Below are positions 38,944 to 61,177 of a stretch of DNA of 64,000 bases, in pieces. The first letter of the stretch is position 1; each line of letters begins with the position of its first letter. This DNA comes from Sphingomonas ginsenosidivorax. GTDB lineage: Bacteria; Pseudomonadota; Alphaproteobacteria; Sphingomonadales; Sphingomonadaceae. The DNA is taken from positions 747,001-811,000 of the forward strand of contig NZ_VOQR01000001.1 of the NCBI RefSeq assembly GCF_007995065.1, in the 5' to 3' direction. The translations under genes were made by a program, and so were the position numbers. The notes beneath the pieces are model-generated. The model did no database searches. It saw only the letters and a program-made list of their open reading frames with translations, and was not told the DNA's origin.

Positions 38944-40628
38944 GCCTGGGTTTCCTCGATGGCGACGCTGCGTCGCAGGATCTTCGCGTCGGGGTCGATC
39001 ACGATATGCGCGCCTGCCGGGACCGGCAGGCTGCCCTTGCCGCCGATCATCGGCACGACGTGCGTCTTCCCCGCGACCTGTACGTCGACCGGCATCGGGA
39101 AGTTCCCGCCGCCGGGCACCGTCCAGCTGAGCGACAGCGTGCCGCCCACGCGGCGCTCGACCAGTTCGGGGAGGGCGGCCTGGCGCAGATAGACGTCGAA
39201 GAACCAGCCATAGTCCTTCCCCGTCACCTTCCGGACGAAGCCTTCATATTCCTTGGCCGATCCGAACCGCGGCTTGAAATTGCCCGGCTTGGGATCGGGC
39301 CGGCCATACACAGCCAGCCGGGTCACGTCGAAGAACGCCGCGTCGCCGATCAGCCCGCGCAGCGTGTGCAGCATCCACGACCCCTTGTAGTAGATGTCGA
39401 GCCCCGCGCCGCCCTTGTCCGCCTCGTACACCTCCTCCTCGGTGGCGACGCGCTGCTGCGTGATCGGCTTGCGGTTGGTGATCAGCGCGCGCTGCGTCTG
39501 CATCATCGCGGCGTAGCGCGCGCGGCCCTCACGCCACTCGCCATAGAGCGGCTGCATGTAGGTGCCATAGCCCTCGTGCAGCCAGTAATCGTCCCAGTTC
39601 GCCGCGGTCAGCTGGTTGCCGAACCATTCATGCGCGAACTCGTGCTGGAACAGCCAGTCGAACCCCTCGGGCGCCTTGGCGTACTCGTTGCCATAGGCGT
39701 TGATCGTCTGGTGCTCCATTCCCTTGTGCGGGGTCTCGACAACGCCGACCTTCTCGTCGCCGAACGGGTAGGGGCCGATCATGGTCTCGAAGAAGTCGAG
39801 CGTCGGCGCGAACTCCGCGAAGAGCTTGTCCGCCTGCGGCTTCTCGCCCCGCAGATACCAATAGGCCATCGGGATGCTGTTGCCGAACCGGCTCTTGTAC
39901 GACCCCGAGACCTCCTCGTACGGCCCGACGTTGAGCGCGATCGCATAGGTGTTCGGAGTCTTGACCCGCCAGTTCCAGCGCGTGCGGCCGTCCGCCAGCG
40001 TGTCGACGCCGAGCAGCACGCCGTTCGACGGCGCCTTCAGCCCCTTGGGCACGGTGATGTGCAGCGTGACGATCCCGGGCTCGCCGGTCGGGAAATCGAG
40101 GCATGGCCAGAACAGGTCGCAGCCATAGCCCTCGGCCGTCGTCGCGAACCAGGTCCGGCCATCGGGCGTCTTCGACCAGACCATGCCGTCGTCCCACGGC
40201 GCACGCACCGCGACGTGCGGCGTGCCGCCATAGGTGATCCTGACGGTCACGCGCCCGCCCGCCGCGATCGGCCTAGGCAGGGTGATGGTCAGCCGACCCT
40301 CGGGATTGGTCCAGGCGGAGGCGGGCAGGGGAACGCCGTCGATCGCGATCGCCGAGACGGGCAGGTTGCGGTCCAGATCGATCGGCAGCCGCGCGATCGG
40401 GGCCTTCGCCCTGAACACCAGCGTGGCAATGCCGTTGAGGCTCTGCGTCTCGGGCAACACCTCGAACGCCAGATCCGCGCTTTCGAAGCCCAGTGCGGTC
40501 TGTTCGGGGGTGAGCACGCCGCCCGATCGCTGCGTCTGCGTGGTGATCGCGGGCTCGCCCTTCTTGGGAAGCGGCGCGGCGGCGATGAGGGCCAGCGTGC
40601 TGGCGGCGAGGAAAAGGCGTATCGTCAT
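38913..40628 (-). CDS. M1-family zinc metallo-aminopeptidase
   Basis: 571 residues from ATG at 40628 with a signal peptide (about 1-18). The beta-sandwich N-terminal domain is followed by the thermolysin-like domain: zinc motif H329-E330-F-A-H333 and E352 in HEGYGTY, and an aminopeptidase GMEH-type loop (KGMEHQT, about 310) in place of GAMEN. The usual C-terminal ARM domain is short or absent, so this is a compact secreted type. Divergent from lon. Confidence 0.92.
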   Translation of the reverse strand: MTIRLFLAASTLALIAAAPLPKKGEPAITTQTQRSGGVLTPEQTALGFESADLAFEVLPETQSLNGIATLVFRAKAPIARLPIDLDRNLPVSAIAIDGVPLPASAWTNPEGRLTITLPRPIAAGGRVTVRITYGGTPHVAVRAPWDDGMVWSKTPDGRTWFATTAEGYGCDLFWPCLDFPTGEPGIVTLHITVPKGLKAPSNGVLLGVDTLADGRTRWNWRVKTPNTYAIALNVGPYEEVSGSYKSRFGNSIPMAYWYLRGEKPQADKLFAEFAPTLDFFETMIGPYPFGDEKVGVVETPHKGMEHQTINAYGNEYAKAPEGFDWLFQHEFAHEWFGNQLTAANWDDYWLHEGYGTYMQPLYGEWREGRARYAAMMQTQRALITNRKPITQQRVATEEEVYEADKGGAGLDIYYKGSWMLHTLRGLIGDAAFFDVTRLAVYGRPDPKPGNFKPRFGSAKEYEGFVRKVTGKDYGWFFDVYLRQAALPELVERRVGGTLSLSWTVPGGGNFPMPVDVQVAGKTHVVPMIGGKGSLPVPAGAHIVIDPDAKILRRSVAIEETQAWTARERPTP

Positions 40629-48960: not shown

Positions 48961-49293
48961 TTACTTCTTCTTGTTCTTCCGCGCGGCGTAGCGCGCATCG
49001 CGTGCGGCCTTCTTTTCCGCTTCGGTCATCACCGACACCTGCGCGGCGGCGAGCGCCTTCGCCTTGGCAGCCTCGGCCTCGGCCTTCTTGGCAGCCTTGG
49101 CGTCCGCCTCGGCCTGCCGCTTGGCGGCGCGCTTCTCGCGCTCGGCCAGTTCCTTCGCTTCGCGCGCGGCGAGGCGTTCGGCGACCGTCGCTTCGTCGAT
49201 CGGCGGCTTGGCGCGCAACGCTTCGAGCGCCTTCGCCTTGGCCTGCGCGGCGCTGTTGGTACGGTCCTGGAAACTGGGGTCTTTGAAAGCCAT
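48961..49293 (-). CDS. Small Lys/Ala/Glu-rich protein (DUF6481-like)
   Basis: 110 residues from ATG at 49293 (MAFKDPSFQDRT). A single long charged helix, probably coiled coil (about 35-105: KRAAKRQAEADAKAAKKAE), ending ARKNKKK. No membrane or signal sequence. It resembles small cytosolic sphingomonad proteins filed as DUF6481; that name is from memory. The low-complexity helix makes distant similarity hard to judge. Confidence 0.7.
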   Translation of the reverse strand: MAFKDPSFQDRTNSAAQAKAKALEALRAKPPIDEATVAERLAAREAKELAEREKRAAKRQAEADAKAAKKAEAEAAKAKALAAAQVSVMTEAEKKAARDARYAARKNKKK

Positions 49294-49430: not shown

Positions 49431-49492
49431 CCGTCACGGAACCGTAACGTCGGCGTCACCCGACCGTCACGAAAACCACATTCAAGCGTCAC
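49431..49492 (+). promoter_or_regulatory. Tandem PHO-box-like array (PhoB binding)
   Basis: Seven-base units at 49431 (CCGTCAC), 49442 (CCGTAAC), 49453 (GCGTCAC), 49464 (CCGTCAC), 49475 (ACCACAT, degenerate) and 49486 (GCGTCAC), each separated by exactly 4 bases (11-base period). The PHO box consists of CTGTCAT-type 7-mers with 4-base spacers. The array is oriented toward the lipoprotein gene, 86 bases upstream of its ATG; a weak TAACCG could be a -10 (49503-49508). The rest of the 284-base gap shows no other feature. Confidence 0.75.
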
Positions 49493-49577
49493 GAACCGCG
49501 CCTAACCGCCGAGATGCGATCGGCAGGGGGGAGCCTGAGTCGATCCATCCAATCAACGAATCGACCCGGGAGTTCCT

Positions 49578-51182
49578 ATGACCAGCTTCAAGCGCCTCAG
49601 CCTCGTTCTGCTGACCGGCACCGCAGCACTCGCACTCTCCGGTTGCGACGGTGCGGACAGCGTCGCATCGCCGGGCGAGGGCGTCATCGTCGTTCCCGGC
49701 ACGCCGACCCCGAGCCCGACCCCCACGCCGACCCCGACCCCGACGCCGGCCGCCGGCACCCCCGCGACGTCGTGCCCGAGCGGCACCACCGATGTCGGCA
49801 TCCTCGGCAACTATCGTTCGTGCCGCCTGCCCGCCGTCATCTCGACCGCGCTGTCGCTGCCGAAGGTCGCGGGCGTCGCCTATGAGATCAACGGCCGCGT
49901 CGATGTCGGCGTCGACATCGGTGGTGCCGGCACGGCACCCGGCGGCATCGCCACGCAGCTGACGATCGCGGCCGGCTCGCTGGTCTATGCCAACACGACG
50001 AACGCCGACAACGACTTCCTGGTCGTCAACCGTGGCTCGAAGCTGTTCGCCGAGGGCACCGAGACCCAGCCGATCATCTTCACCGCGCAGGCCAACCTGA
50101 CCGGCGGCGTGACCGACGAATCGCAGGGCCTGTGGGGCGGCGTGATCCTCGCCGGCCGCGCGCCGGTGTCGAACTGCAACGCGACCGTCGCCGGCGGCTC
50201 GGCGACCTGCGAGAACGTCGTCGAGGGCACCAGCACGGCGCTGTACGGCGGTGCGACGCCGACCGACAGCAGCGGCACGATCCGCTACGTCCAGATCCGT
50301 TATTCGGGCACCGTCATCAGCCCGAACAACGAGTTGCAGGGCCTGACGCTCGGCGGCACGGGGTCGGGCACCACGATCGATCACGTCCAGATCCACAACA
50401 GCTCGGACGACGGCATCGAGATCTTCGGCGGCCGTACCAACCTGCGCTATCTGGCGCTGACCGGGTCTGACGATGACGGCCTGGATACCGATGTCGGCTG
50501 GCAGGGTTTCGTGCAGTTCGTGCTCGCGATTCAGAAGCCGACCAACACGCAGACCGACAACTACTCGACCGAGATCGACTCGAACGGGTCGGAAGACGCA
50601 CTGCCGCGCCAAGCCTACAACCTCGCCAACTTCACCTTCATCCAGACCTCGACCGCGACCAACGCGGCGATCCGTCTGCGCGGCGGTGCGGATGCGACGT
50701 TCGTCAACGGCATCGTCAGCAGCGCATCGGGCGCCTGCCTCAACGTGATCGCCGGTGCCGACGCCGGCGGCAAGACGACGATCCGTCCGGCCAATGCGGC
50801 GCTCGAGGACAAGGGGCCTCCGGTGTTCAACTCGGTCGTGTTCAGCTGCCCCTCGGCCTATGCCGAGACTGCGGTCAACGGCATCACGGTGACGACCGCC
50901 GAGCAGCAGGCGCTGTTCCGCGCCGGCACCAACAACACCGAAAGCGCCGCGGTCGGTTCGGCCGTCACGGGCACCTTCCTGCCCGCCGGCGTGTCGACCA
51001 CGACGACGGCGTTCAACGCGGCCACGCTCAATCCGGCGGGCACGTCGTTCCTGGTGAATACCTCGTATGTCGGCGCGGTCAACGGCACGACCGACACTTG
51101 GTATCGCGGTTGGACGTGCAACTCGAACCGCGCGAACTTCGGCACGACCAGCACCGCCTGCACCGCACTGCCGACCACCTGA
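49578..51182 (+). CDS. Beta-helix lipoprotein with Thr-Pro linker, likely surface protein
   Basis: 534 residues from ATG at 49578. Signal peptide and lipobox LALSGC (lipidated C23) followed by Asp24. A Thr-Pro linker with about nine TP units (41-60) joins it to a C-terminal domain rich in Gly/Thr/Asn/Val with TIDHVQIHNSSDDGIEIFGG, typical of a right-handed beta-helix. Four or more Cys may form disulfides. Asp after the lipid Cys blocks the Lol sorting machinery and is also found in the T2SS lipoprotein pullulanase. Directly upstream is the PHO-box array; the TonB receptor follows and a T2SS operon is 3.8 kb away. Resembles the phosphate-starvation surface lipoproteins of Caulobacter by context; function unproven. 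Confidence 0.8.
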   Translation: MTSFKRLSLVLLTGTAALALSGCDGADSVASPGEGVIVVPGTPTPSPTPTPTPTPTPAAGTPATSCPSGTTDVGILGNYRSCRLPAVISTALSLPKVAGVAYEINGRVDVGVDIGGAGTAPGGIATQLTIAAGSLVYANTTNADNDFLVVNRGSKLFAEGTETQPIIFTAQANLTGGVTDESQGLWGGVILAGRAPVSNCNATVAGGSATCENVVEGTSTALYGGATPTDSSGTIRYVQIRYSGTVISPNNELQGLTLGGTGSGTTIDHVQIHNSSDDGIEIFGGRTNLRYLALTGSDDDGLDTDVGWQGFVQFVLAIQKPTNTQTDNYSTEIDSNGSEDALPRQAYNLANFTFIQTSTATNAAIRLRGGADATFVNGIVSSASGACLNVIAGADAGGKTTIRPANAALEDKGPPVFNSVVFSCPSAYAETAVNGITVTTAEQQALFRAGTNNTESAAVGSAVTGTFLPAGVSTTTTAFNAATLNPAGTSFLVNTSYVGAVNGTTDTWYRGWTCNSNRANFGTTSTACTALPTT

Positions 51183-51199
51183 CCTGCATCGACATCCCA

Positions 51200-51321
51200 T
51201 CCTCCCCCGCCAGGGGGAGGTGGCAGCGAAGCTGACGGAGGGGGAGGACACGAAACGGATGTCGTCGGTACCGCCCCCTCCGTCTGCCTGCGGCAGCCAC
51301 CTCCCCCTGGCGGGGGAGGAT
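51200..51321. repeat. Composite palindrome, family D, copy 2
   Basis: Same CCTCCCCCGCCAGGGGGAGG arm design as at 28711. It lies between the lipoprotein stop and the receptor start, possibly uncoupling or tuning expression of the two. Confidence 0.85.
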
Positions 51322-51365
51322 GAAATGTCGATTACGAACATACTCCTCTTGTTGCCGGGGCAGCC

Positions 51366-54092
51366 ATGAAGTCTTCCGTTCTCGTCTCCGTCCTTCTTGC
51401 GACGACGACGCTCGTGCCCGCGCATGCGCTGGCGCAAAGCGCACCCGCAGGCGGCGCTCCTGCTGCCAGCCCCGCCGGTAGCGTCGTCTCGCCCCAGGCC
51501 GGCACGCCCGCCGATCCTGCGCAACAGGCGGCGCAGCAGCAGGAACAGGTCGAGATCTCGACCCCCGGCGGCAGCACCAGCGGCGGTGACGACATCGTCG
51601 TGGTCGGCCGCAACATCCCCGACGTCGTCCGCGCGACTCCGGAAGTCGTCAGCGTCCTCTCCACCGCCGACATCGCACGCACCGGCGAAGGCGACATCGC
51701 CGGCGCGCTGCAGCGCGTCACCGGCCTGTCGGTGGTCGGCAACGGCTTCGTCTATGTCCGCGGCCTCGGCGACCGCTATTCCTCGTCGCTGCTCAACGGC
51801 TCGCCGCTGCCTTCCCCCGAGCCGCTGCGCCGCGTCGTTCCGCTCGACATCTTCCCGACCAACGTCATCGCGTCGGCGCTCGTCCAGAAGAGCTATTCGG
51901 TCAACTATCCCGGCGAGTTCGGCGGCGGCGTCATCAACCTGACGACCAAGGCCGTGCCGCAGGAGACGTTCCTGCAGATCGGCGGTTCGGTCGGGGCCGA
52001 CACGGTCACGACCAGCGAGCTCGGCTATGTCTATGACGGCGGCAAGTACGACCAGTTCGGCTTCGACAGCGGCGAGCGCAAGGTGCCCGCGTTCATCAAG
52101 GCGGCGGGCAAGAACGGCACCTCGCCGACGTCTGCGAACCTCACCGAATTGTCGAACGCGCCGACGACGCTGCTCCAGCAGAACAACCAGCTGCCCGCCA
52201 ACCTGTCGGGCGAGATGAGCTTCGGCACCTTCACCGACGTCGGCAGCACGCGCGTCGGTGTGATCGCCGCGGCGGGGATCAGCAACACCTGGCGCACGCG
52301 CTACGACAAGCAGCAGTCGACCGACGATGCCAGCGGTATCCTGACGCGCGATTTCCGCACGGTGCTGACCGACAACCGCGCGGTCGTGAACGGGCTGTTG
52401 GGCTTCGGCGCGGAGTTCGGCGAAAACAAGATCCGCTGGACCAACCTCTACATCCACGACACGCTCAAGCAGGGGCGGCTGAGCAGCGGCAACACCGCGA
52501 ACATCGGCATCCCGTCACCCTACGGCAAACCGGCCTTCATCACGCAGAACACCAGCTGGTTCGAACGCCAGCTGATCGACACGCAGCTGGTCGGCGAGTT
52601 CAAGTTCGGCAACTTCGCGTTCGACACGCGCGGCAGCTACGCCAAGACCGAACGCAACTCGCCCTACGAGCGTCAGTTCACCTATCAGTACAACACGGCC
52701 GTCAAGGACTATACCAACAACCTCAGCGGGTTGCAGAGCGCGTCTGTCGCGTTCAGCGAACTCGACGAGACCCTGTGGTCGGGCCAGGCGAACCTGACCT
52801 GGAACGCGCCGACGGACCGTCCGTTCGCGCTCTCGGTCGGCTATGCGTATAACGACACCAGCCGCGATTCGAGCCGCTACACCTTCCAGTATTCGGCCGC
52901 GAACAACGGCGCGCTCGGCGACGTGCTCGCGCAGCTGCGCCCCGACTATCTGCTGTCCGATTACATCGTCACGACGAACGGCATCTATCTGCGCAACACC
53001 TCGACCGGGCAGGGCGCCGCAGCCTATGACGCGTCGCTCAAGGTCCACGGCGCGTATGGGCAGGTCGAGGGCGAGATCCTCGACGGGCTGCGCGCCACGG
53101 TCGGCGTCCGCTACGAGACCGCCGAGGAGCGCGTGACGCCGTCGGGCGGCGCTGCGGCGACCAACCTGAAGAACGACTATTTCCTGCCCGCGGTCACCGT
53201 CACCTGGAACTTCGCGTCGGACCTTCAGGCGCGACTGCACTTCTCGAAGACGCTCGCGCGCCCGCAGTTCCGCGAGCTTGCGCCGCAGCTGTACCAGGAT
53301 TTCGATTCGGACCGCCTGTTCTTCGGCAACGCGTTCCTGAAGGACTCCGAGCTCTACAACGCCGAGGCGAGGACCGAATGGTATTTCGCCAAGGACCAGC
53401 GCCTGAGCCTCGCCGGCTTCTACAAGCGGATCGAGAACCCGATCGAGGCGGTCGCGTTCTTCCCGGCGGGCAGCGACACGCTGCAGACCGGTTTCGCCAA
53501 CGCACCGCAGGCGAAGCTCTACGGCGGCGAGACCGAGTTCCAGAAATATATCGGTCTCGACGTGCTGGGTGCCGACTGGCTGGCGACGCGTCGCCTCGTG
53601 CTGATCGCCAACTACACCTACACGCACTCGTCGATCAGCGCCGACGACCAGCTGATCGCGAGCCCGCTCCAGGCCGGCTCGCAGGTCCAGCTGCGCCCTG
53701 CCAACATCCTGTTCCAGGACGGCGCGCCGCTGGTCGGCCAGTCCGACCACCTCGTGAACCTGCAGATCGGGATCGAGGACAAGAAGAGCCTGTCGCAGTT
53801 CACCTGGCTGTTCAACTATGCCAGCAACCGCGTCACCAATCGCGGACCCGTGGGCGGCGGCGGCGGCATCCGCCTGCCCGACCTGATCGAGAAGCCGGGC
53901 ATCCGCCTCGACTTCGTCGGTCGCCAGGGCATCACGGTGATGGACAAGCAGATCGAGGTGAAGTTCGAGGCGCGCAACATCACGGGGACGGGCTACCGCG
54001 AGTACCAGACCTTCTCGAACGGCAACCAGGTCGACATCAACAAGTACCGACTGGGCCGGATGTTCACGCTGGGCGCGAGCGTGACGTTCTAA
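51366..54092 (+). CDS. Large TonB-dependent outer-membrane receptor
   Basis: 908 residues from ATG at 51366. Signal peptide (about 1-23, ending HALAQ), then a Pro/Ala/Gln-rich segment (24-75), an ISTPGGSTSGGDDIVVVGR TonB-box-type start, the plug domain (about 85-210, with LQRVTGLSVVG and NGSPLPSPEPLRRVVPLDIFP) and the beta-barrel ending in ...LGASVTF with a terminal Phe. Substrate unknown. Directly downstream of the beta-helix lipoprotein, so the pair may share a ligand; phosphate-bearing compounds are suggested by the PHO boxes. Confidence 0.92.
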   Translation: MKSSVLVSVLLATTTLVPAHALAQSAPAGGAPAASPAGSVVSPQAGTPADPAQQAAQQQEQVEISTPGGSTSGGDDIVVVGRNIPDVVRATPEVVSVLSTADIARTGEGDIAGALQRVTGLSVVGNGFVYVRGLGDRYSSSLLNGSPLPSPEPLRRVVPLDIFPTNVIASALVQKSYSVNYPGEFGGGVINLTTKAVPQETFLQIGGSVGADTVTTSELGYVYDGGKYDQFGFDSGERKVPAFIKAAGKNGTSPTSANLTELSNAPTTLLQQNNQLPANLSGEMSFGTFTDVGSTRVGVIAAAGISNTWRTRYDKQQSTDDASGILTRDFRTVLTDNRAVVNGLLGFGAEFGENKIRWTNLYIHDTLKQGRLSSGNTANIGIPSPYGKPAFITQNTSWFERQLIDTQLVGEFKFGNFAFDTRGSYAKTERNSPYERQFTYQYNTAVKDYTNNLSGLQSASVAFSELDETLWSGQANLTWNAPTDRPFALSVGYAYNDTSRDSSRYTFQYSAANNGALGDVLAQLRPDYLLSDYIVTTNGIYLRNTSTGQGAAAYDASLKVHGAYGQVEGEILDGLRATVGVRYETAEERVTPSGGAAATNLKNDYFLPAVTVTWNFASDLQARLHFSKTLARPQFRELAPQLYQDFDSDRLFFGNAFLKDSELYNAEARTEWYFAKDQRLSLAGFYKRIENPIEAVAFFPAGSDTLQTGFANAPQAKLYGGETEFQKYIGLDVLGADWLATRRLVLIANYTYTHSSISADDQLIASPLQAGSQVQLRPANILFQDGAPLVGQSDHLVNLQIGIEDKKSLSQFTWLFNYASNRVTNRGPVGGGGGIRLPDLIEKPGIRLDFVGRQGITVMDKQIEVKFEARNITGTGYREYQTFSNGNQVDINKYRLGRMFTLGASVTF

Positions 54093-54194: not shown

Positions 54195-54851
54195 TCACCG
54201 CCACTCGCGTTCGCGAAACCATTTCGTGATCACGTACTTCACGCCCTGGCGCACCTTCATCCCGTGATGCAGCGTCGCCGGGTTCAGGCTGCCGTCCGCC
54301 CGCCGGTTGTTCCAGGCGAGCAGTTTCCCCGCCTCGGCGGGCACGATCTTGTCGATCGCCTTGAACCGCGTCGCGCCGCCCGCGCCGGGCGTGTTGAGGT
54401 ACACCATGACGGTCCAGGTCCGGTTGCCCGCGACCGAGCAGTAGCGATCATAATCCACCCCCGTGGGCTCGAAATAATCGGTATGTCCCTTGAACTCCTG
54501 CCCGACCGCGTAGCGCTGCCCCTGCAGCGGCTCGCCATGCGCGCCGGCGAGACCGGTCAGCGCGGCGATCCGCGCCTCGACGTCGAGGACGACCGGGTCG
54601 GCTGCGTCGAGATCGCCGGTCTCGCTGGTCCGGTACGCGGCATCGCCGTTCGAATCGGAGATCGTCGAGGGTCGGCGCACCGCGTCGATCCGCGCGATCA
54701 GTGCCGCGCACAGGTCGGGCGGCAGGAAGTCGCGCTTCACGAACAGGTCGAGCTTCGGGCTCGGCACGCGCTGCACGCCGGGGACGCCGAGCCGCGCGAG
54801 GATCGGGGCAGGGTCGAGGCCGGAGGAACTCGCCGAGGAACTGTCTGTCAT
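54195..54851 (-). CDS. 2OG-Fe(II) oxygenase, prolyl-4-hydroxylase type
   Basis: 218 residues from ATG at 54851, no signal peptide, so cytosolic. The P4Hc domain has iron ligands H123 and D125 (GHTDYF) and H195 (LHHGMKV) and the 2-oxoglutarate Lys K205 (GVKYV). A related ORF pattern is seen in bacterial prolyl hydroxylases acting on EF-Tu or collagen-like peptides. It lies between the TonB receptor (convergent) and gspC (divergent). The Thr-Pro linker of the nearby lipoprotein is a possible target; not proven. Confidence 0.87.
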   Translation of the reverse strand: MTDSSSASSSGLDPAPILARLGVPGVQRVPSPKLDLFVKRDFLPPDLCAALIARIDAVRRPSTISDSNGDAAYRTSETGDLDAADPVVLDVEARIAALTGLAGAHGEPLQGQRYAVGQEFKGHTDYFEPTGVDYDRYCSVAGNRTWTVMVYLNTPGAGGATRFKAIDKIVPAEAGKLLAWNNRRADGSLNPATLHHGMKVRQGVKYVITKWFREREWR

Positions 54852-54955
54852 ACCGCGCTTCTGCCAAGCCGCGCGGCTTCGCGCAAACGCGACAAATCAT
54901 TGACGCGCGTTCGTAACATGGCATGCCTATCCGCAGGGATGCGGGACGGAATCAC

Positions 54956-55783
54956 ATGCGTTTGAAGCTCGATGCCCGGGCGCGCCGTATCTTGCGGCGG
55001 ATGCCCGTCGTGAATGTCTATTCGCTGGCCGAGCTGGCTCTGATGGGGGTGCTGGCGGTCCAGTGCGCGCGGTTCGTCTGGGTGCTGACGACGCCGGTGA
55101 CGCCGCTCGGCGCCTGGCGTCCGGCGGCGCCCGTCGTCGCGGGCGCGGATATCCTCGGCAGCTTCGACCCGTTCTTTCGTCTCGGCGGCGGCGCCGCGGC
55201 GCCGGCCACCGTCACCGCGCTGCAGCTGACGCTGTTCGGTACGCGCATCGACGAGGCGATGGGCGGCGGCTCGGCGATCATCGCCGGGCCCGACGGCGTC
55301 CAGCAGAGCGTCGCGGTCGGCGCCGAGATCCAGCCCGGCGTGCGCCTCAAATCGGTCGCGTTCGACCATGTCACGATCGAGCGCGGCGGCGCGGACGAGG
55401 ACCTGTTCCTCGACCAGTCGGGCGCGGTGACGCCGGTCATCCCAGGGGCAGCGCCGGGCGCGGCGCCCGCAAGCCCCGCGGCCGGCATCCCGGTCGCGCA
55501 GCTTCGTCAGGAGATCGGCTTCATCCCGCGGATCGACGACGGCCGGATCAGCGGTCTCACCGTCCGCGCGCAGGGCAGCGGCGCGGCGTTCCGCGCCGCC
55601 GGGCTCAAGGACGGCGACGTCGTCACGTCGCTCGGCGGACGCCCGGTCTCGGGCCCCGGCGACCTCGACCGCATCGCCAAGGATTTCGCAGGGGGCGGCA
55701 ACGTCCCCATCACCGTCGAGCGCGGCCAGGACACGCTGCAGCTCGCCATCACGATCGCACCCTCAATGAAAACGGCTCAATGA
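54956..55783 (+). CDS. gspC: Type II secretion inner-membrane protein GspC
   Basis: 275 residues from ATG at 54956. One N-terminal membrane helix (about 22-44) after a basic cytosolic start, a periplasmic HR domain (about 70-150) that contacts the secretin, a Pro/Ala linker (165-180) and a C-terminal PDZ domain (about 180-270, AAGLKDGDVVTSLGGRPV). First gene of the operon; the stop overlaps gspD by ATGA. Confidence 0.92.
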   Translation: MRLKLDARARRILRRMPVVNVYSLAELALMGVLAVQCARFVWVLTTPVTPLGAWRPAAPVVAGADILGSFDPFFRLGGGAAAPATVTALQLTLFGTRIDEAMGGGSAIIAGPDGVQQSVAVGAEIQPGVRLKSVAFDHVTIERGGADEDLFLDQSGAVTPVIPGAAPGAAPASPAAGIPVAQLRQEIGFIPRIDDGRISGLTVRAQGSGAAFRAAGLKDGDVVTSLGGRPVSGPGDLDRIAKDFAGGGNVPITVERGQDTLQLAITIAPSMKTAQ

Positions 55784-57996
55784 AACGCTATTTAGCTCCG
55801 ATCGCGGTGGTCGCGATGGCTGCGACAACGCAGGCGCAGACCACGCTCAACGTCCGCGACGCCGATATCCGCGCGTTCATCGCCGATGCGGCCAAGGTTA
55901 CCGGCCGCACCTTCATCATCGACAACCGCGTCGCGGGGAAGGTGACCGTCGTCACCGACCGCCCGCTGTCGCGGTCCGAATATTTCGAGATATTTCTGTC
56001 GACGCTGCGCTCGAACGGGCTGGTCGCGGTGCCGACCTCGAACGGCGCGTTCCGGATCCAACCGCTCGACAATGCCGCGTCGCAGCCGAGCCGGATCGGC
56101 GTCGGCGGTGCCGCGCGCAACAGCTACGTCACCGAGATAGTCCGCCTCCGCTCGATCGACGCGACCAGCGCGGTCGACACGGTGCGCCCGCTGGTCAGCG
56201 CGCAAGGCTCGGTCAGCGCGAACCGCGGCGGCAACAGCCTCGTGATCGTCGACTTCGCCGACAATATCCGCCGCGTCCGCGAAGTGCTGCGCCGCATCGA
56301 CACCGACAATGCGTCGACGCGGGTGATCGCGCTCAAGAATGCGAGCGCCAAGGAGATCGCGACCGCGCTGCAGGGGCTGATCGGCGCGGGCACGGGCGGC
56401 GGGCAGGGCGGCGCAGCCGGTGCCGCAGGCGGCGGGCCCACCGCATCCGTGGTCGCGGTCGAAGGATCCAACGCGGTCGCGCTGCGCGGCGATTCCGCGA
56501 CCGTCGCACGCCTCGCGCAGGTCGCGATCGACCTCGACCAGAAGGCGCGCAACGGCACCGAGATCAAGGTCGTGTTCCTCGAGAACGCCGACGCGGAGCA
56601 GCTCCTGCCGGTGCTGCAGGAGCTCGTCGGCCAGACCCCGACCCAGCCGACCAGCCAGGCGCTGTCGCGGACCAATTTCGGATCGAGCAGCACCAACGGC
56701 AGCTCGGGGTCGCAGGCCGTCCAGCAACCGCAGATCAGCCAACCCGTGCCAACGGCCGCCAGCGGCGGATCCGGGACCGGCCAGCCCGCGCTCACCACCG
56801 CAGGCGGCAAGACCGCCGCCGTCGTCACGCGCTTCACCGGCGCCAACGCGATCGTCATCGCCGCGCCCGCCGAGATCCAGCGTCAGCTCGCCGAGGTCGT
56901 CCGCCAGCTCGACACGCGGCGCGAACAGGTGCTGGTCGAGGCGATCGTCGCCGAGGTGTCGGACACCACCGCCAAGACGCTCGGTGCGCAGTTCATCGTC
57001 GGCGATCCCAGCGGCGGCGCGTTCGGCGCGTCGACCTTCTCGAACTCCGCGCCGAACATCCTGCAGATCGCCGGCGCGATCGGCGCGACGCAGCTCAACA
57101 CGTCGAGCACGACGACGCAGAACACCGACGGCAGCACGACGACGACCAATACCACCAGCCCGGCGGCCGACACGCTGCAGCAGTCCGCGATCGCCTCGAT
57201 CCTCGCAGCGAGCGGCGGGTTCGGCGGGTTCGGCGGCAAGATCGGCAGCACCTTCTTCGGCGCGATCATCAACGCGGTGAAGAGCGACAGCCAGTCGAAC
57301 CTGCTCCAGGTCCCGCATCTCGTCACGCTCGACAACCAGGAGGCACACAGCCTGGTCGGGCAGGAGATCCCGATCACCACGGGCCGCGCGCTGTCGAACA
57401 ATTTCGACAATGCGTTCCAGACCACGCAGCGCCAGAATGTCGGCATCGAGCTGACGGTGCGCCCGCAGGTCAATTCGAGCGGCACGGTGAAGCTCAACCT
57501 GCGCCTGGAAGTCAGCTCGATCGCCGGGCCGGTGTCGAGCGACAACAGCGACCTGATCCTCAACAAGCGCGAGGTCGAGACCGTCCGTACCGTCGACGAC
57601 GGCCAGATCGCGGTGATCTCGGGTCTGCTCGACGACAATGAGCGTCGCACGATCGAGAAGATCCCGCTGCTCGGCGACCTGCCCGTGCTCGGCCACCTGT
57701 TCACGTCCAAGGCGAAGCAGCGGTCGAAGACCAACCTCATGATCTTCATCCGCCCGACCATCCTGCGCACCGCGGAGGACAGCCGCCGCCTGACCGAGCA
57801 GCGCTACGGCTATGTGCGGTTGCAGCAGGGGTTGCAGGATCCGAATTCGGAGCCGTCGATCGACCAGCTCGTCCGCGATTACATGGGCGCCGCGCCCCCG
57901 ATCCCGAGCGCGCCGATCCCGGGCAATATCGAGGACCCGCGGATCGCGGTCCCGGTGCGGAGTTCGTCCACCGTGTTCCGGCCGGCTAAGCGGTGA
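55780..57996 (+). CDS. gspD: Type II secretion outer-membrane secretin GspD
   Basis: 738 residues from ATG at 55780. Signal peptide (about 1-19), N0 domain (TLNVRDADIRAFIADAAK), N1-N3 repeats separated by Gly/Ser-rich spacers, then the secretin core with VPHLVTLDNQEAHSLVGQEI and IPLLGDLPVLGHLFTS. A Thr/Asn-rich insert (about 445-460, TTTNTT) and Gly-rich FGGFGG precede it. Forms the outer-membrane pore for folded substrates. Stop overlaps the gspE GTG. Confidence 0.96.
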   Translation: MKRYLAPIAVVAMAATTQAQTTLNVRDADIRAFIADAAKVTGRTFIIDNRVAGKVTVVTDRPLSRSEYFEIFLSTLRSNGLVAVPTSNGAFRIQPLDNAASQPSRIGVGGAARNSYVTEIVRLRSIDATSAVDTVRPLVSAQGSVSANRGGNSLVIVDFADNIRRVREVLRRIDTDNASTRVIALKNASAKEIATALQGLIGAGTGGGQGGAAGAAGGGPTASVVAVEGSNAVALRGDSATVARLAQVAIDLDQKARNGTEIKVVFLENADAEQLLPVLQELVGQTPTQPTSQALSRTNFGSSSTNGSSGSQAVQQPQISQPVPTAASGGSGTGQPALTTAGGKTAAVVTRFTGANAIVIAAPAEIQRQLAEVVRQLDTRREQVLVEAIVAEVSDTTAKTLGAQFIVGDPSGGAFGASTFSNSAPNILQIAGAIGATQLNTSSTTTQNTDGSTTTTNTTSPAADTLQQSAIASILAASGGFGGFGGKIGSTFFGAIINAVKSDSQSNLLQVPHLVTLDNQEAHSLVGQEIPITTGRALSNNFDNAFQTTQRQNVGIELTVRPQVNSSGTVKLNLRLEVSSIAGPVSSDNSDLILNKREVETVRTVDDGQIAVISGLLDDNERRTIEKIPLLGDLPVLGHLFTSKAKQRSKTNLMIFIRPTILRTAEDSRRLTEQRYGYVRLQQGLQDPNSEPSIDQLVRDYMGAAPPIPSAPIPGNIEDPRIAVPVRSSSTVFRPAKR

Positions 57997-59621
57997 TCGC
58001 GGTCGGCACCTCGGAGGACGCGTTCCCCTCCCGCTTGCGGGAGGGGCTAGGGGAGGGCATGTCCGCAGACGACGCGCTCTTGTTGACAGGCCCTCCCCTG
58101 ACCCCTCCCGCAGGCGGGAGGGGAGTCCCCCAGCCACTCCCCCAACTCACCATCCCCTACGCCTTCGCCCGGAAATTCGGCGTCGTGGTCGACCACACCG
58201 ACACCGACTCCCACCTGACCATCGCGATGCGCGAGGGCGCGGACCCCAAGGTCCTGCTCGAACTCCGCCGCTATCTCGGCCGCGCGTTCGACGTGGGTAT
58301 CGTCGAAGCCCCCGCGTTCGATCGCCTGCTCTCCAACGTCTATGCGATGGACGGCCAGGCCAACGCGCTCGCCGCGGTCGGGATGGGCGACGAGCTCGAC
58401 CTGCTCGCAGGCGACATGCCGACCGCGGAGGACCTGCTCGACACCGCCGACGACGCGCCGGCGATCCGGCTGATCAACGGCATCATCGCCGACGCCGCGC
58501 GCAACGGCGTGTCGGACATCCATATCGAGCCCTATGAGTCCGGCCTCGTCATCCGCATGCGCATCGACGGCGTGTTGCGCGAGACGCTCCGCATGCCCGC
58601 CAACGTCGCGCCGGTCGTCGTCAGCCGCATCAAGGTGATGGCGCGGCTCGACATCGCCGAGCGGCGCGTGCCGCAGGACGGCCGGATGGGGCTGACGCTG
58701 GGCGGCAAGCTGCTCGACGTCCGTGTCTCGACGCTGCCGAGCCGCGCAGGCGAGCGCGTCGTGCTGCGTATCCTCGACAAGGAGAATGCCGGAATCACGC
58801 TGGAGGCGCTGGGCCTGCCGCCCGCGCTGTTCGCGCTGCTGCGTGAATCGCTCGCCGAGCCCAACGGCATCATCCTCGTCACCGGGCCGACGGGCTCGGG
58901 CAAGACGACGAGCCTCTACGCCGCGCTGCGCCTCCTCAACGACGGCAGCCGCAACATCCTGACCGTCGAGGACCCCGTCGAGTATGCGGTCGACGGGGTC
59001 GGCCAGACTCAGGTGAACCCCAAGGTTGGGCTGACCTTCGCCGCGGGGCTGCGCGCGATCCTGCGCCAGGATCCCGACGTCGTGATGGTCGGCGAAATCC
59101 GCGACCGCGAGACCGCCGAGATCGCGGTGCAGGCGTCGCTGACCGGGCACCTCGTGCTGTCGACGGTCCACACCAACGACGCGATCGGCGCGATCACGCG
59201 CATGCGCGACATGAAGGTCGAGAGCTTCCTGCTCGCGTCCACGCTGCGCGCGGTGATCGCGCAGCGGCTGGTGCGGCGATTGTGCCCGACGTGCCGCCGC
59301 GCGGTGCCCGCGGCGGAGACGGTCGCGCCGCTGCTCGGGATCCCGGGCGACGCGGTGGTATATGTCGCACAAGGCTGCGACGAGTGCGGGCAGACCGGGT
59401 TCAAGGGCCGCATCGGCGTGTTCGAGGCGGTCCGCATCGACGACACCATCCGCCGCCTGATCAACACCGACGGCGACGAGACCGCGATCACCGCGCATGC
59501 GTTCGCGAAGTCCCCGAACCTCGCGCAGTCGGCGCGGGAGCTGGTGCTGTCGGGGCAGACGACGGCTGAGGAAGCGGTGCGAGTTTCGCGGCGCGATACC
59601 GCCGAGGTGGAGGATGCGTGA
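57993..59621 (+). CDS. gspE: Type II secretion ATPase GspE
   Basis: Powers pseudopilus assembly at the inner membrane. 542 residues from GTG 57993, which overlaps the gspD stop (GTGA), or 520 from ATG 58059, which has a strong GGGGAGGG ribosome site from a palindrome. Residues about 11-45 are the translated palindrome (58023-58126); conserved GspE sequence starts at PYAFARKFGV (about 53). Walker A GPTGSGKTT (298-306), Asp box and Walker B (DPDVVMVGEIRD), His box LSTVHTN, and the tetracysteine zinc motif C431, C434, C462, C465. Confidence 0.95.
   Translation: MIAVGTSEDAFPSRLREGLGEGMSADDALLLTGPPLTPPAGGRGVPQPLPQLTIPYAFARKFGVVVDHTDTDSHLTIAMREGADPKVLLELRRYLGRAFDVGIVEAPAFDRLLSNVYAMDGQANALAAVGMGDELDLLAGDMPTAEDLLDTADDAPAIRLINGIIADAARNGVSDIHIEPYESGLVIRMRIDGVLRETLRMPANVAPVVVSRIKVMARLDIAERRVPQDGRMGLTLGGKLLDVRVSTLPSRAGERVVLRILDKENAGITLEALGLPPALFALLRESLAEPNGIILVTGPTGSGKTTSLYAALRLLNDGSRNILTVEDPVEYAVDGVGQTQVNPKVGLTFAAGLRAILRQDPDVVMVGEIRDRETAEIAVQASLTGHLVLSTVHTNDAIGAITRMRDMKVESFLLASTLRAVIAQRLVRRLCPTCRRAVPAAETVAPLLGIPGDAVVYVAQGCDECGQTGFKGRIGVFEAVRIDDTIRRLINTDGDETAITAHAFAKSPNLAQSARELVLSGQTTAEEAVRVSRRDTAEVEDA
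58023..58126. repeat. Composite palindrome, family E, copy 2 (inside gspE)
   Basis: TTCCCCTCCCGCTTGCGGGA arm, AGGGGAGGGC segment, unique centre, and the inverse order. It lies wholly inside the gspE reading frame near its 5' end, in frame with it. Confidence 0.9.
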
Positions 59622-59633
59622 TCCCCACGCCCT

Positions 59634-59722
59634 CCGTCACCCTGAACTCGTTTCAGGGTCCACTGGCACGCGAACGCTATCGCTCGGGGAGCGGTGGATG
59701 CTGAACCAAGTTCAGCATGACG
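59634..59722. repeat. Composite palindrome, family C, copy 2
   Basis: CCGTCACCCTGAACTCGTTT left arm, ...GAACCAAGTTCAGCATGACG right arm; inside the first duplicated unit. Confidence 0.8.
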
Positions 59723-59835
59723 GCGATGCTTTGGGGGTCGGCCGACACCTTGGCTCCTTAGATCATCTCGCGATCGACACGCACCGCGTGACACGGCGGA
59801 GGTGGAGGATGTGTGAACCTCGGCCAAAACCCCCG

Positions 59836-59923
59836 CGTCACCCTGAACTTGTTTTAGGGTCCATCTGTCCCCAAGCGCGATGGCCTGGGGAGCGGTGGAT
59901 GCTGAACCAAGTTCAGCATGACG
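59836..59923. repeat. Composite palindrome, family C, copy 3
   Basis: CGTCACCCTGAACTTGTTTT left arm, GAACCAAGTTCAGCATGACG right arm; about 85 percent like copy 2 by eye, inside the second duplicated unit. Confidence 0.8.
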
Positions 59924-59950
59924 GGTGTGCGTTGGGAGCCGGCCGACCCC

Positions 59951-61177
59951 ATGGCTGACTTCGACTATCTCGCGATCGACACGAAGGGTTCCGAAAGGCG
60001 CGGCCACATCGCCGCGGCCGACATCGACGTCGCGCGCGCGGCGCTCGACGCGCGCAAGCTCTACGTCGTCAAGCTTGCCCCCGGCGCGCCGCCCCAGGCG
60101 TCGGCCGGCCGTCCGCTGTTCGGCCTGCAGCTCGGCAAGCCGAAGATGTCGGGCAAGAACCTCACGCTCTTCACCCGCCAGCTCGCGACGCTCAACCGCG
60201 TCTCGCCGCTGGAGGAAAGCCTCCGCACGATCACCCGCCAGACCGAGCAGGAGAGCGTCCGCACGATCGTCGCGACCGTCCATGCCGGCGTCGTCGAGGG
60301 CCGTCGCCTCGCCGACGCGATGGCGCGCGAGCCGAAAAGCTTCCCGCCGCTCTACCGCGCGATGGTCGCGGCGGGCGAAAGCTCGGGGTCGCTGCCGACG
60401 ATCCTCGACCGGCTTGCAGCGCTGCTCGAACGCCAGGCCGAGATCCGCGGCAAGCTGATCACCGCGCTCGCCTATCCCTCGATCCTCGCGCTGGTCGCAT
60501 TGGGCGTCGTCACCGCGCTGATGATGTTCGTCGTGCCGCAGGTCGTCGAACAGTTCGACACGGTCGGCCAGCAACTGCCCTTCCTGACCCGCATGGTGAT
60601 GGCGTTCTCGGCGTTCCTCGTCGGCTATTGGTGGGTGATGCTGCTGGTCCTCGTCGTTGCCGGCCTCGGCGGCTGGCAGGCGCTCAAGAACCCCGAGATG
60701 CGGCTCGCCTTCGACAGCTGGCTGCTCCGCATTCCGCTGCTCGGCCGGCTGCTGCGCGACCTCCACGCCGCGCGCATGGCGCGCACGCTGGGTACGATGG
60801 TCGCAAGCCGCCTGCCGCTGCTCGACGGTCTGAACCTCACAGCCAGCACGATCCACAACCGCCGCCTCCGGCTCGCCTCGGACCAGATCGTCGAGGCGAT
60901 CCGCGGCGGCGGCAGCCTGTCGGCCGCGATGCGTCGCGCCGGCGTGTTCCCGCCGCTGCTCACCTATCTGGCGGCGAGCGGCGAGGCGGCGGGGCGGCTC
61001 GACGAGATGCTCGAGCGCGCCGCCGACTATCTCGAGCGTGAGTTCGACCGCTTCACCGCGACCGCACTGTCGCTGCTCGAACCGCTGATCATCGTCGTGA
61101 TGGGCGGCATCGTCGCGACGATCGTGCTATCCATCCTGCTCCCGATCCTCCAGCTCAACACGCTGGCAGGCCAATGA
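59951..61177 (+). CDS. gspF: Type II secretion inner-membrane platform protein GspF
   Basis: 408 residues from ATG at 59951 (MADFDYLAIDTKG). Two T2SSF domains (about 75-195 and 275-395) with three membrane helices (about 175-200, 220-240, 380-405) and the FTRQLATL and MVAAGESSGSL motifs. It couples GspE to pseudopilin assembly. Stop overlaps an ATG of gspG (ATGA). Confidence 0.95.
   Translation: MADFDYLAIDTKGSERRGHIAAADIDVARAALDARKLYVVKLAPGAPPQASAGRPLFGLQLGKPKMSGKNLTLFTRQLATLNRVSPLEESLRTITRQTEQESVRTIVATVHAGVVEGRRLADAMAREPKSFPPLYRAMVAAGESSGSLPTILDRLAALLERQAEIRGKLITALAYPSILALVALGVVTALMMFVVPQVVEQFDTVGQQLPFLTRMVMAFSAFLVGYWWVMLLVLVVAGLGGWQALKNPEMRLAFDSWLLRIPLLGRLLRDLHAARMARTLGTMVASRLPLLDGLNLTASTIHNRRLRLASDQIVEAIRGGGSLSAAMRRAGVFPPLLTYLAASGEAAGRLDEMLERAADYLEREFDRFTATALSLLEPLIIVVMGGIVATIVLSILLPILQLNTLAGQ

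What the first reader, a model, noticed from the sequence alone, without database searches (positions are those of the whole stretch)
49431..51182. Tandem PHO-box array drives a beta-helix lipoprotein and probably its TonB receptor
Six 7-base units at exact 11-base period (49431, 49442, 49453, 49464, 49475, 49486; five match a (C/G)CGT(C/A)AC pattern) precede the lipoprotein gene. Two PhoB-sized dimer sites or more would fit. The downstream lipoprotein and TonB-dependent receptor have no known substrate; phosphate control would suggest uptake of phosphorylated compounds or surface phosphatase-type function.
Basis: partly seen in the sequence, partly recalled or inferred. Interest (0 to 1): 0.82.

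Follow-up and report, generated by a model that had tools for sequence, protein, structure and literature searches.

The report
Phosphate-starvation switch for a surface lipoprotein
A Sphingomonas chromosome carries six evenly spaced sites that most likely let the phosphate-starvation regulator PhoB switch on a surface lipoprotein already known from Caulobacter, and in Sphingomonas this lipoprotein and its receptor gene appear to be swapped between species as a pair.

Summary
The array is real: six units at 11-bp period, 49431-49492, five matching the motif; no other 11-bp pair of that motif lies in the 64 kb. It is very probably a PHO-box array. In 30 of 30 pstS promoters examined from the genus, GTCAY half-sites lie in the same register. 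A matrix trained on them, own genome left out, ranks 49431 first in the window. The genome encodes PhoB. Of 70 elpS-like loci read, 50 keep three or more in-register sites and 46 keep first and last 55 bp apart. In 41 of these 46 a CTA (-10) starts 9 bp after the last site. Gene order matches the Caulobacter elpS locus, whose elpS promoter is published as phosphate- and PhoB-dependent (PMC5172544). So: a new member of a known kind. Control of the receptor is uncertain; a hairpin separates the genes. Beyond the finding: gspC has a weaker PHO-like box, ElpS occurs in two circularly permuted forms, and the ElpS-receptor pair seems exchanged as a cassette beneath a resident promoter.

The parts
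49431..49492 (+). Six-unit PHO-box array (7-bp half-sites at 49431, 49442, 49453, 49464, 49475, 49486; 11-bp period)
49502..49507 (+). Putative -10 element CTAACC, 9 bp after the last half-site
   Evidence: CTA at offset 9 in 41 of 46 loci with the full span
49578..51182 (+). elpS-like gene: 534-aa lipoprotein (LSGC lipobox by eye, Pro/Thr linker, right-handed parallel beta-helix, C-terminal ~106-aa segment)
51188..51325 (.). Long GC-rich palindrome between elpS and the receptor gene, at the place where 65 of 70 loci have a hairpin
51366..54092 (+). TonB-dependent receptor, 908 aa, presumed partner of the lipoprotein
   Evidence: PF00593 and PF07715; follows elpS in 70 of 70 loci
54195..54851 (-). 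2OG-Fe(II) oxygenase gene (PF13640), opposite strand
54900..54932 (+). PHO-like gspC promoter: TTGACGC (54900) N4 TCGTAAC (54911) N9 CTATCC (54927); weaker evidence
54956..55783 (+). gspC (the listed ATG at 54923 lies upstream of the putative -10; MRLK start at 54956 preferred)
   Evidence: PF11356
55806..63313 (+). Rest of the type II secretion genes: gspD, gspE 57993-59621, gspF-like 59918-61177, pseudopilin-like ORFs to 63313
   Evidence: gspE PF00437; the others named by reading the translations and by synteny only
48961..49293 (-). Divergent upstream gene, DUF6481

Best explanation
The array is a class II PhoB promoter. Under phosphate starvation PhoR phosphorylates PhoB; PhoB dimers bind the six 7-bp half-sites head to tail, the last one 9-10 bp upstream of the -10 element, and recruit RNA polymerase to elpS. 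The product is a surface-anchored beta-helix lipoprotein made in large amounts. The receptor gene behind it is reached by partial read-through past a hairpin. The adjacent T2SS operon carries its own shorter PHO-like box. Together they form an ElpS-type module for getting phosphorus from organic compounds at the cell surface. Shown by computation: the array, its conservation, its match to pstS sites, PhoB in the genome, gene order, the fold. Inferred: PhoB binding, phosphate response in this species, read-through, amount, substrate.
For: Array and chance tests. 30 of 30 pstS loci (the best-matching 30 of 78 genus genomes with a PstS hit) have two GTCAY half-sites 22 bp apart, 24 of them with GTAAC exactly between; in the own genome the middle unit is GGATAAC. 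pstS-trained matrix, own site left out: best window score 19.7 at 49431, best outside the array -0.9. PhoB 333.3 bits, cut-off 296.2, in a pst-pho cluster. 70 loci: 50 with three or more in register, 46 with the 55-bp span; spacing peaks at 11, 22, 33, 44, 55. CTA at offset 9 in 41 of 46. Named collection, overlapping in species: 53 of 78 with three or more, 50 of 78 span 55, 52 of 78 half-site-N9-CTA. Caulobacter: elpS promoter fusion induced by phosphate limitation, PhoB-dependent (PMC5172544); T2SS in the PhoB regulon (PMC11208175).
Against: No expression or binding data for this species. The window array scores lower than the own pstS site (19.7 against 42.1). 4 of 70 loci show no second in-register site. 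Outside the genus an in-register pair is kept in 2 of the 7 upstreams I printed, though half-site-N9-CTA is kept in 5 of 7 (by eye). A strict two-site-plus-CTA scan of the genome is not enriched over its control, 5 against 4. [quoted passage not shown]
Confidence: 0.88

Rival explanations
1. The array controls elpS alone; the receptor has its own, PhoB-independent promoter or is only weakly read through the hairpin.
For: Hairpin stem of 9 or more pairs within 90 nt of the elpS stop in 65 of 70 loci against 19 of 70 in-gene control stretches; 183-nt gap with a palindrome folding at -123.5 kcal/mol in the window; cc0171 reported constitutive in Caulobacter, data not shown (PMC2996285).
Against: The two genes are adjacent and co-oriented in 70 of 70 and inherited as one unit; a hairpin without a long T run may only lower read-through (inference).
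Confidence: 0.45
2. Another OmpR-family regulator with an 11-bp direct repeat, such as CenR (TGA-N8-TGA), uses the array.
For: The minus strand of the array reads TGA-N8-TGA between GTCA units (from the sequence); CenR motif TGA-N8-TGA is published (PMC9275681, passages).
Against: The same sites in the same orientation sit at pstS; the elpS promoter of Caulobacter depends on PhoB; the published ChvI motifs (TTGC-N3-GCAA; GCC-N8-GCC) do not resemble it.
Confidence: 0.06
3. The array is a chance or low-complexity repeat.
For: GC-rich window with many short repeats.
Against: None of 30 surrogates comes near it; in the 70-locus comparison the surrogate rate for three or more in register is 0.0000 against 50 of 70 observed.
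Confidence: 0.01

Closest known systems
Caulobacter crescentus elpS (CC0170 / CCNA_00169) - CC0171 TonB receptor - gspC-N locus
   Same: Gene order lipoprotein, TonB-dependent receptor, type II secretion genes; phosphate-starvation and PhoB control of the lipoprotein promoter (PMC2996285, PMC5172544), T2SS in the PhoB regulon (PMC11208175). The 2010 paper already names Sphingomonas alaskensis among species with the arrangement.
   Different: Here a six-site array with a 55-bp span; a 2OG-Fe(II) oxygenase on the opposite strand between receptor and gspC; two permuted forms of the lipoprotein across the genus. Direct sequence comparison with CC0170 was not made, and I have not read the Caulobacter elpS promoter. 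MucR also acts there; not examined here.
E. coli-type PHO boxes (CTGTCAT direct repeats)
   Same: 7-bp units with 4-bp spacers, 11-bp period (PMC4415409, passages); last half-site about 10 bp before the -10 (E. coli spacing recalled, not looked up).
   Different: GC-rich half-sites (YGTCAC, YGTAAC), six units, CTA-type -10.
SusC/SusD-like outer-membrane pairs (recalled)
   Same: A surface lipoprotein inherited together with a TonB-dependent receptor.
   Different: The lipoprotein is modelled as a beta-helix, not as the helical SusD fold (recalled).

Membership tests
PhoB-controlled (PHO-box) promoter | 7-bp direct repeats at 11-bp period | tested here: met
PhoB-controlled (PHO-box) promoter | Half-site matches the genus' own PHO boxes | tested here: met
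   pstS-trained matrix ranks the array first in the window
PhoB-controlled (PHO-box) promoter | PhoB encoded in the genome | tested here: met
   TIGR02154 333.3 bits, cut-off 296.2
PhoB-controlled (PHO-box) promoter | Last half-site set at a fixed distance from the -10 | tested here: met
   CTA at offset 9 in 41 of 46; that CTA is the -10 is inferred
PhoB-controlled (PHO-box) promoter | Phosphate- and PhoB-dependent transcription | not testable with these tools
   Published for the Caulobacter counterpart only
ElpS locus | Lipoprotein gene directly before a TonB-dependent receptor gene and T2SS genes | tested here: met
ElpS locus | Sequence homology to CC0170 | not tested
   No sequence known to be from Caulobacter was obtained; a wider class search stayed unanswered
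ElpS locus | T2SS-dependent release, phosphatase activity in supernatant | not testable with these tools
   PMC2996285 abstract
Right-handed parallel beta-helix | Beta-helix fold | tested here: met

The most novel reading that the evidence does not exclude
The ElpS-receptor pair is an exchangeable surface cassette: in Sphingomonas two alternative alleles, one with the lipoprotein in a circularly permuted form that arose once, have replaced each other at least five times (tree counts) at the same chromosomal site, while the PhoB array promoter upstream and the oxygenase and T2SS genes downstream stayed in place. The lipoprotein and receptor must therefore fit each other, and the phosphate response is hard-wired to the site rather than to the allele.
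Probability: 0.6. Interest if true: 0.62.

Novelty: new member of a known kind. Interest (0 to 1): 0.5.

Why it matters
It carries the PhoB-ElpS-T2SS link from one model species to a whole genus, with a promoter so regular that phosphate control can be tested directly. The cassette exchange and the permuted form give natural pairs for finding which parts of lipoprotein and receptor touch, and for asking what the pair takes up, for which the papers I saw name no substrate.

Tried and rejected
Chance repeat: rejected. ChvI as regulator: published motifs do not resemble the array. CenR kept as a minor rival. Genome-wide list of PhoB targets by a strict two-site-plus-CTA pattern: not enriched, 5 matches against 4 in the control, although two of the five lie at a PHO4-family phosphate transporter and at a PhoD phosphatase/TonB-receptor pair. 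Of the 9 three-unit matches in the genome, those at 705628, 1783385 and 2184619 and the repeat at 2827239 were looked at by translation only and not followed up. Pfam and NCBIfam gave no family for the lipoprotein at E <= 0.001; the 120 listed homologues carry precomputed PF28492, which the local Pfam copy lacks. By sequence the PDB gave one chance-level hit for ElpS (E 0.64) and none at E <= 0.001 for the receptor. The model of a permuted form was poor (pLDDT 56.8), so the two forms could not be compared in structure, and coordinates of the good model were not available for measuring the distance between its ends. A two-site match at 40622 near a Lon gene looked like background.

Full report
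WHERE. The window lies in a Sphingomonas genome (inferred: named relatives whose ElpS core is 82-90% identical include S. faeni, S. albertensis, S. aurantiaca and S. rubra). The gene order is DUF6481 (-), elpS-like lipoprotein, TonB-dependent receptor, 2OG-Fe(II) oxygenase (-), then gspC, gspD, gspE and further type II secretion genes (gspD and the pseudopilins named by reading only).

OBSERVATION. The motif occurs 57 times in the window on both strands, yet no other two copies on one strand are 11 bp apart. The six-unit score is 33.0 against a maximum of 3.0 in 30 surrogates.

IS IT A PHO BOX? The own genome has a phoR-pst-phoU-phoB cluster: PhoB and PhoU above their curated cut-offs, the PhoR-like kinase below its cut-off, PstS over the Pfam cut-off; pstC, pstA and pstB were named by reading. 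In 30 of 30 pstS loci examined (the best-matching of 78 genomes) two GTCAY half-sites lie 22 bp apart, and in 24 of the 30 a GTAAC unit stands exactly between; the own genome has GGATAAC there. The window's first three units follow the same order, GTCAC, GTAAC, GTCAC. A 29-bp matrix from the 24 distinct sites of other genomes scores 19.7 at 49431; the best place outside the array is -0.9, and the own pstS site scores 42.1. So the array is of this kind but each triple is weaker than pstS, which may be why there are six units (inference).

CONSERVATION. Of 81 genus genomes, 74 have a homologue; 70 loci, the window included, were read. In 50 of 70 at least three half-sites stand in register, in 16 two, in 4 one. 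First and last are exactly 55 bp apart in 46 of 70. Spacings between half-sites peak at 11, 22, 55, 44 and 33 (52, 50, 46, 36, 31 pairs); the next is 20 with 11 pairs. Controls with two or more in register: antisense strand of the same stretch 0 of 70, receptor upstream 0 of 63, oxygenase upstream 0 of 64 (its antisense 13 of 64, none with three), gspC upstream 3 of 39, gspE 0 of 35, DUF6481 upstream 0 of 8 (its antisense, which is the elpS promoter itself, 8 of 8). In a second, named collection that overlaps in species the figures are 53 of 78 with three or more, and 50 of 78 with the 55-bp span. A class-wide search found homologues at E <= 1e-20 in 12 of 387 genomes, so at that threshold the protein is patchy outside the genus.

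PROMOTER GEOMETRY. In 41 of 46 loci with the full span, CTA begins 9 bp after the last half-site; in the window this is CTAACC at 49502. In 7 relatives from other genera and families whose upstreams I printed, 5 keep half-site-N9-CTA and 2 keep an in-register pair (read by eye). E. coli PhoB promoters have the box about 10 bp before the -10 (recalled), so this looks like a class II PhoB promoter.

THE T2SS PROMOTER. Upstream of gspC a GTAAY half-site is found in 39 of 39 loci tested (within 130 bp, no background rate computed), with [CT]TA at the same offset of 9 bp in 30 of 39 and at any other offset in at most 3; one unit upstream TTGACGC or a variant often stands in register. This is weaker evidence. 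It agrees with the T2SS being in the PhoB regulon of Caulobacter (PMC11208175, section 11 read); [quoted passage not shown]

READ-THROUGH TO THE RECEPTOR. A hairpin of 9 or more pairs follows the elpS stop in 65 of 70 loci against 19 of 70 in-gene stretches. In the window the gap is 183 nt and holds a long palindrome. This suggests much lipoprotein and less receptor (inference). Caulobacter cc0171 was reported constitutive, data not shown (PMC2996285, passages).

KNOWN COUNTERPART. In Caulobacter ElpS production is specifically raised under phosphate starvation (PMC2996285, section 8 read) and its promoter fusion needs PhoB for induction; MucR also acts at that promoter (PMC5172544, passages read). 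I searched for Sphingomonas PHO boxes and this locus and saw in those listings no report of the array in Sphingomonas; subscription journals are mostly not held, and I did not read those papers for it.

BEYOND THE FINDING: PERMUTATION. In 40 of 70 loci the last ~106 residues of ElpS sit between the Pro/Thr linker and the beta-helix core instead of after it. On a core tree the permuted rows form one side of a single branch (SH-aLRT 100, one change). Six of six single-core relatives outside the genus with both parts matched have the unpermuted order, so that order is probably ancestral. Three other loci carry a tandem double-core form of 965-969 aa; such a duplication is a known route to a permutation (recalled).

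BEYOND THE FINDING: CASSETTE EXCHANGE. The label permuted/unpermuted needs one change on the ElpS tree and one on the receptor tree, but 12 (at least 7 forced by well-supported branches) on the oxygenase tree and 6 (at least 5 forced) on the gspE and gspF trees. Seven loci match the window at 81-85% in the oxygenase, 72-82% in gspC and 88-93% in gspE but only 54-56% in ElpS (permuted form) and 57-59% in the receptor; one locus (L043) matches everywhere; and three loci without gsp genes in the stretch match at 74-75% in both ElpS and receptor. In the 90 bp before elpS the seven have 68-72 identical positions, L043 74 and the three 50-54; a few more distant loci reach 60-68, so this last point is only suggestive. 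The simplest reading is that the pair was replaced beneath a resident promoter. These are quick trees of one genus, and the direction of each exchange is not resolved.

VERDICT. Observation confirmed; interpretation supported for the lipoprotein, open for the receptor. A new member of a known kind, with an unexpected evolutionary pattern around it.

Noticed in passing
49578-51182, and 40 of the loci L048-L145: ElpS occurs in two circularly permuted forms in Sphingomonas (40 of 70 permuted); the permuted rows lie on one side of a single branch.
   Followed up: yes
49578-54092 against 54195-61177: elpS and receptor genes appear to be exchanged together under a resident promoter, independent of the flanking oxygenase and T2SS genes.
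   Followed up: yes
L246:3515-6421, L249 and L250: Double-core ElpS proteins of 965-969 aa in other alphaproteobacterial families, next to a receptor gene and gsp genes.
   Followed up: partly
54900-54932: PHO-like box with the same -10 spacing before gspC.
   Followed up: partly
51188-51325: Long GC-rich palindrome between elpS and the receptor gene; its CTCCCCC/GGGGGAG arms were flagged in none of the other 69 gaps.
   Followed up: partly
L253:1501-1529 and L254:1501-1529: PHO-box-like sites in the same genome at a PHO4-family phosphate transporter gene and between a PhoD phosphatase and a TonB-receptor gene.
   Followed up: partly
L065:4768-4795: Three in-register half-sites (one mismatch) before another TonB-dependent receptor gene of the same genome.
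   Followed up: no
54195-54851: A 2OG-Fe(II) oxygenase gene on the opposite strand is listed after the receptor gene in 61 of 70 loci; role unknown.
   Followed up: no
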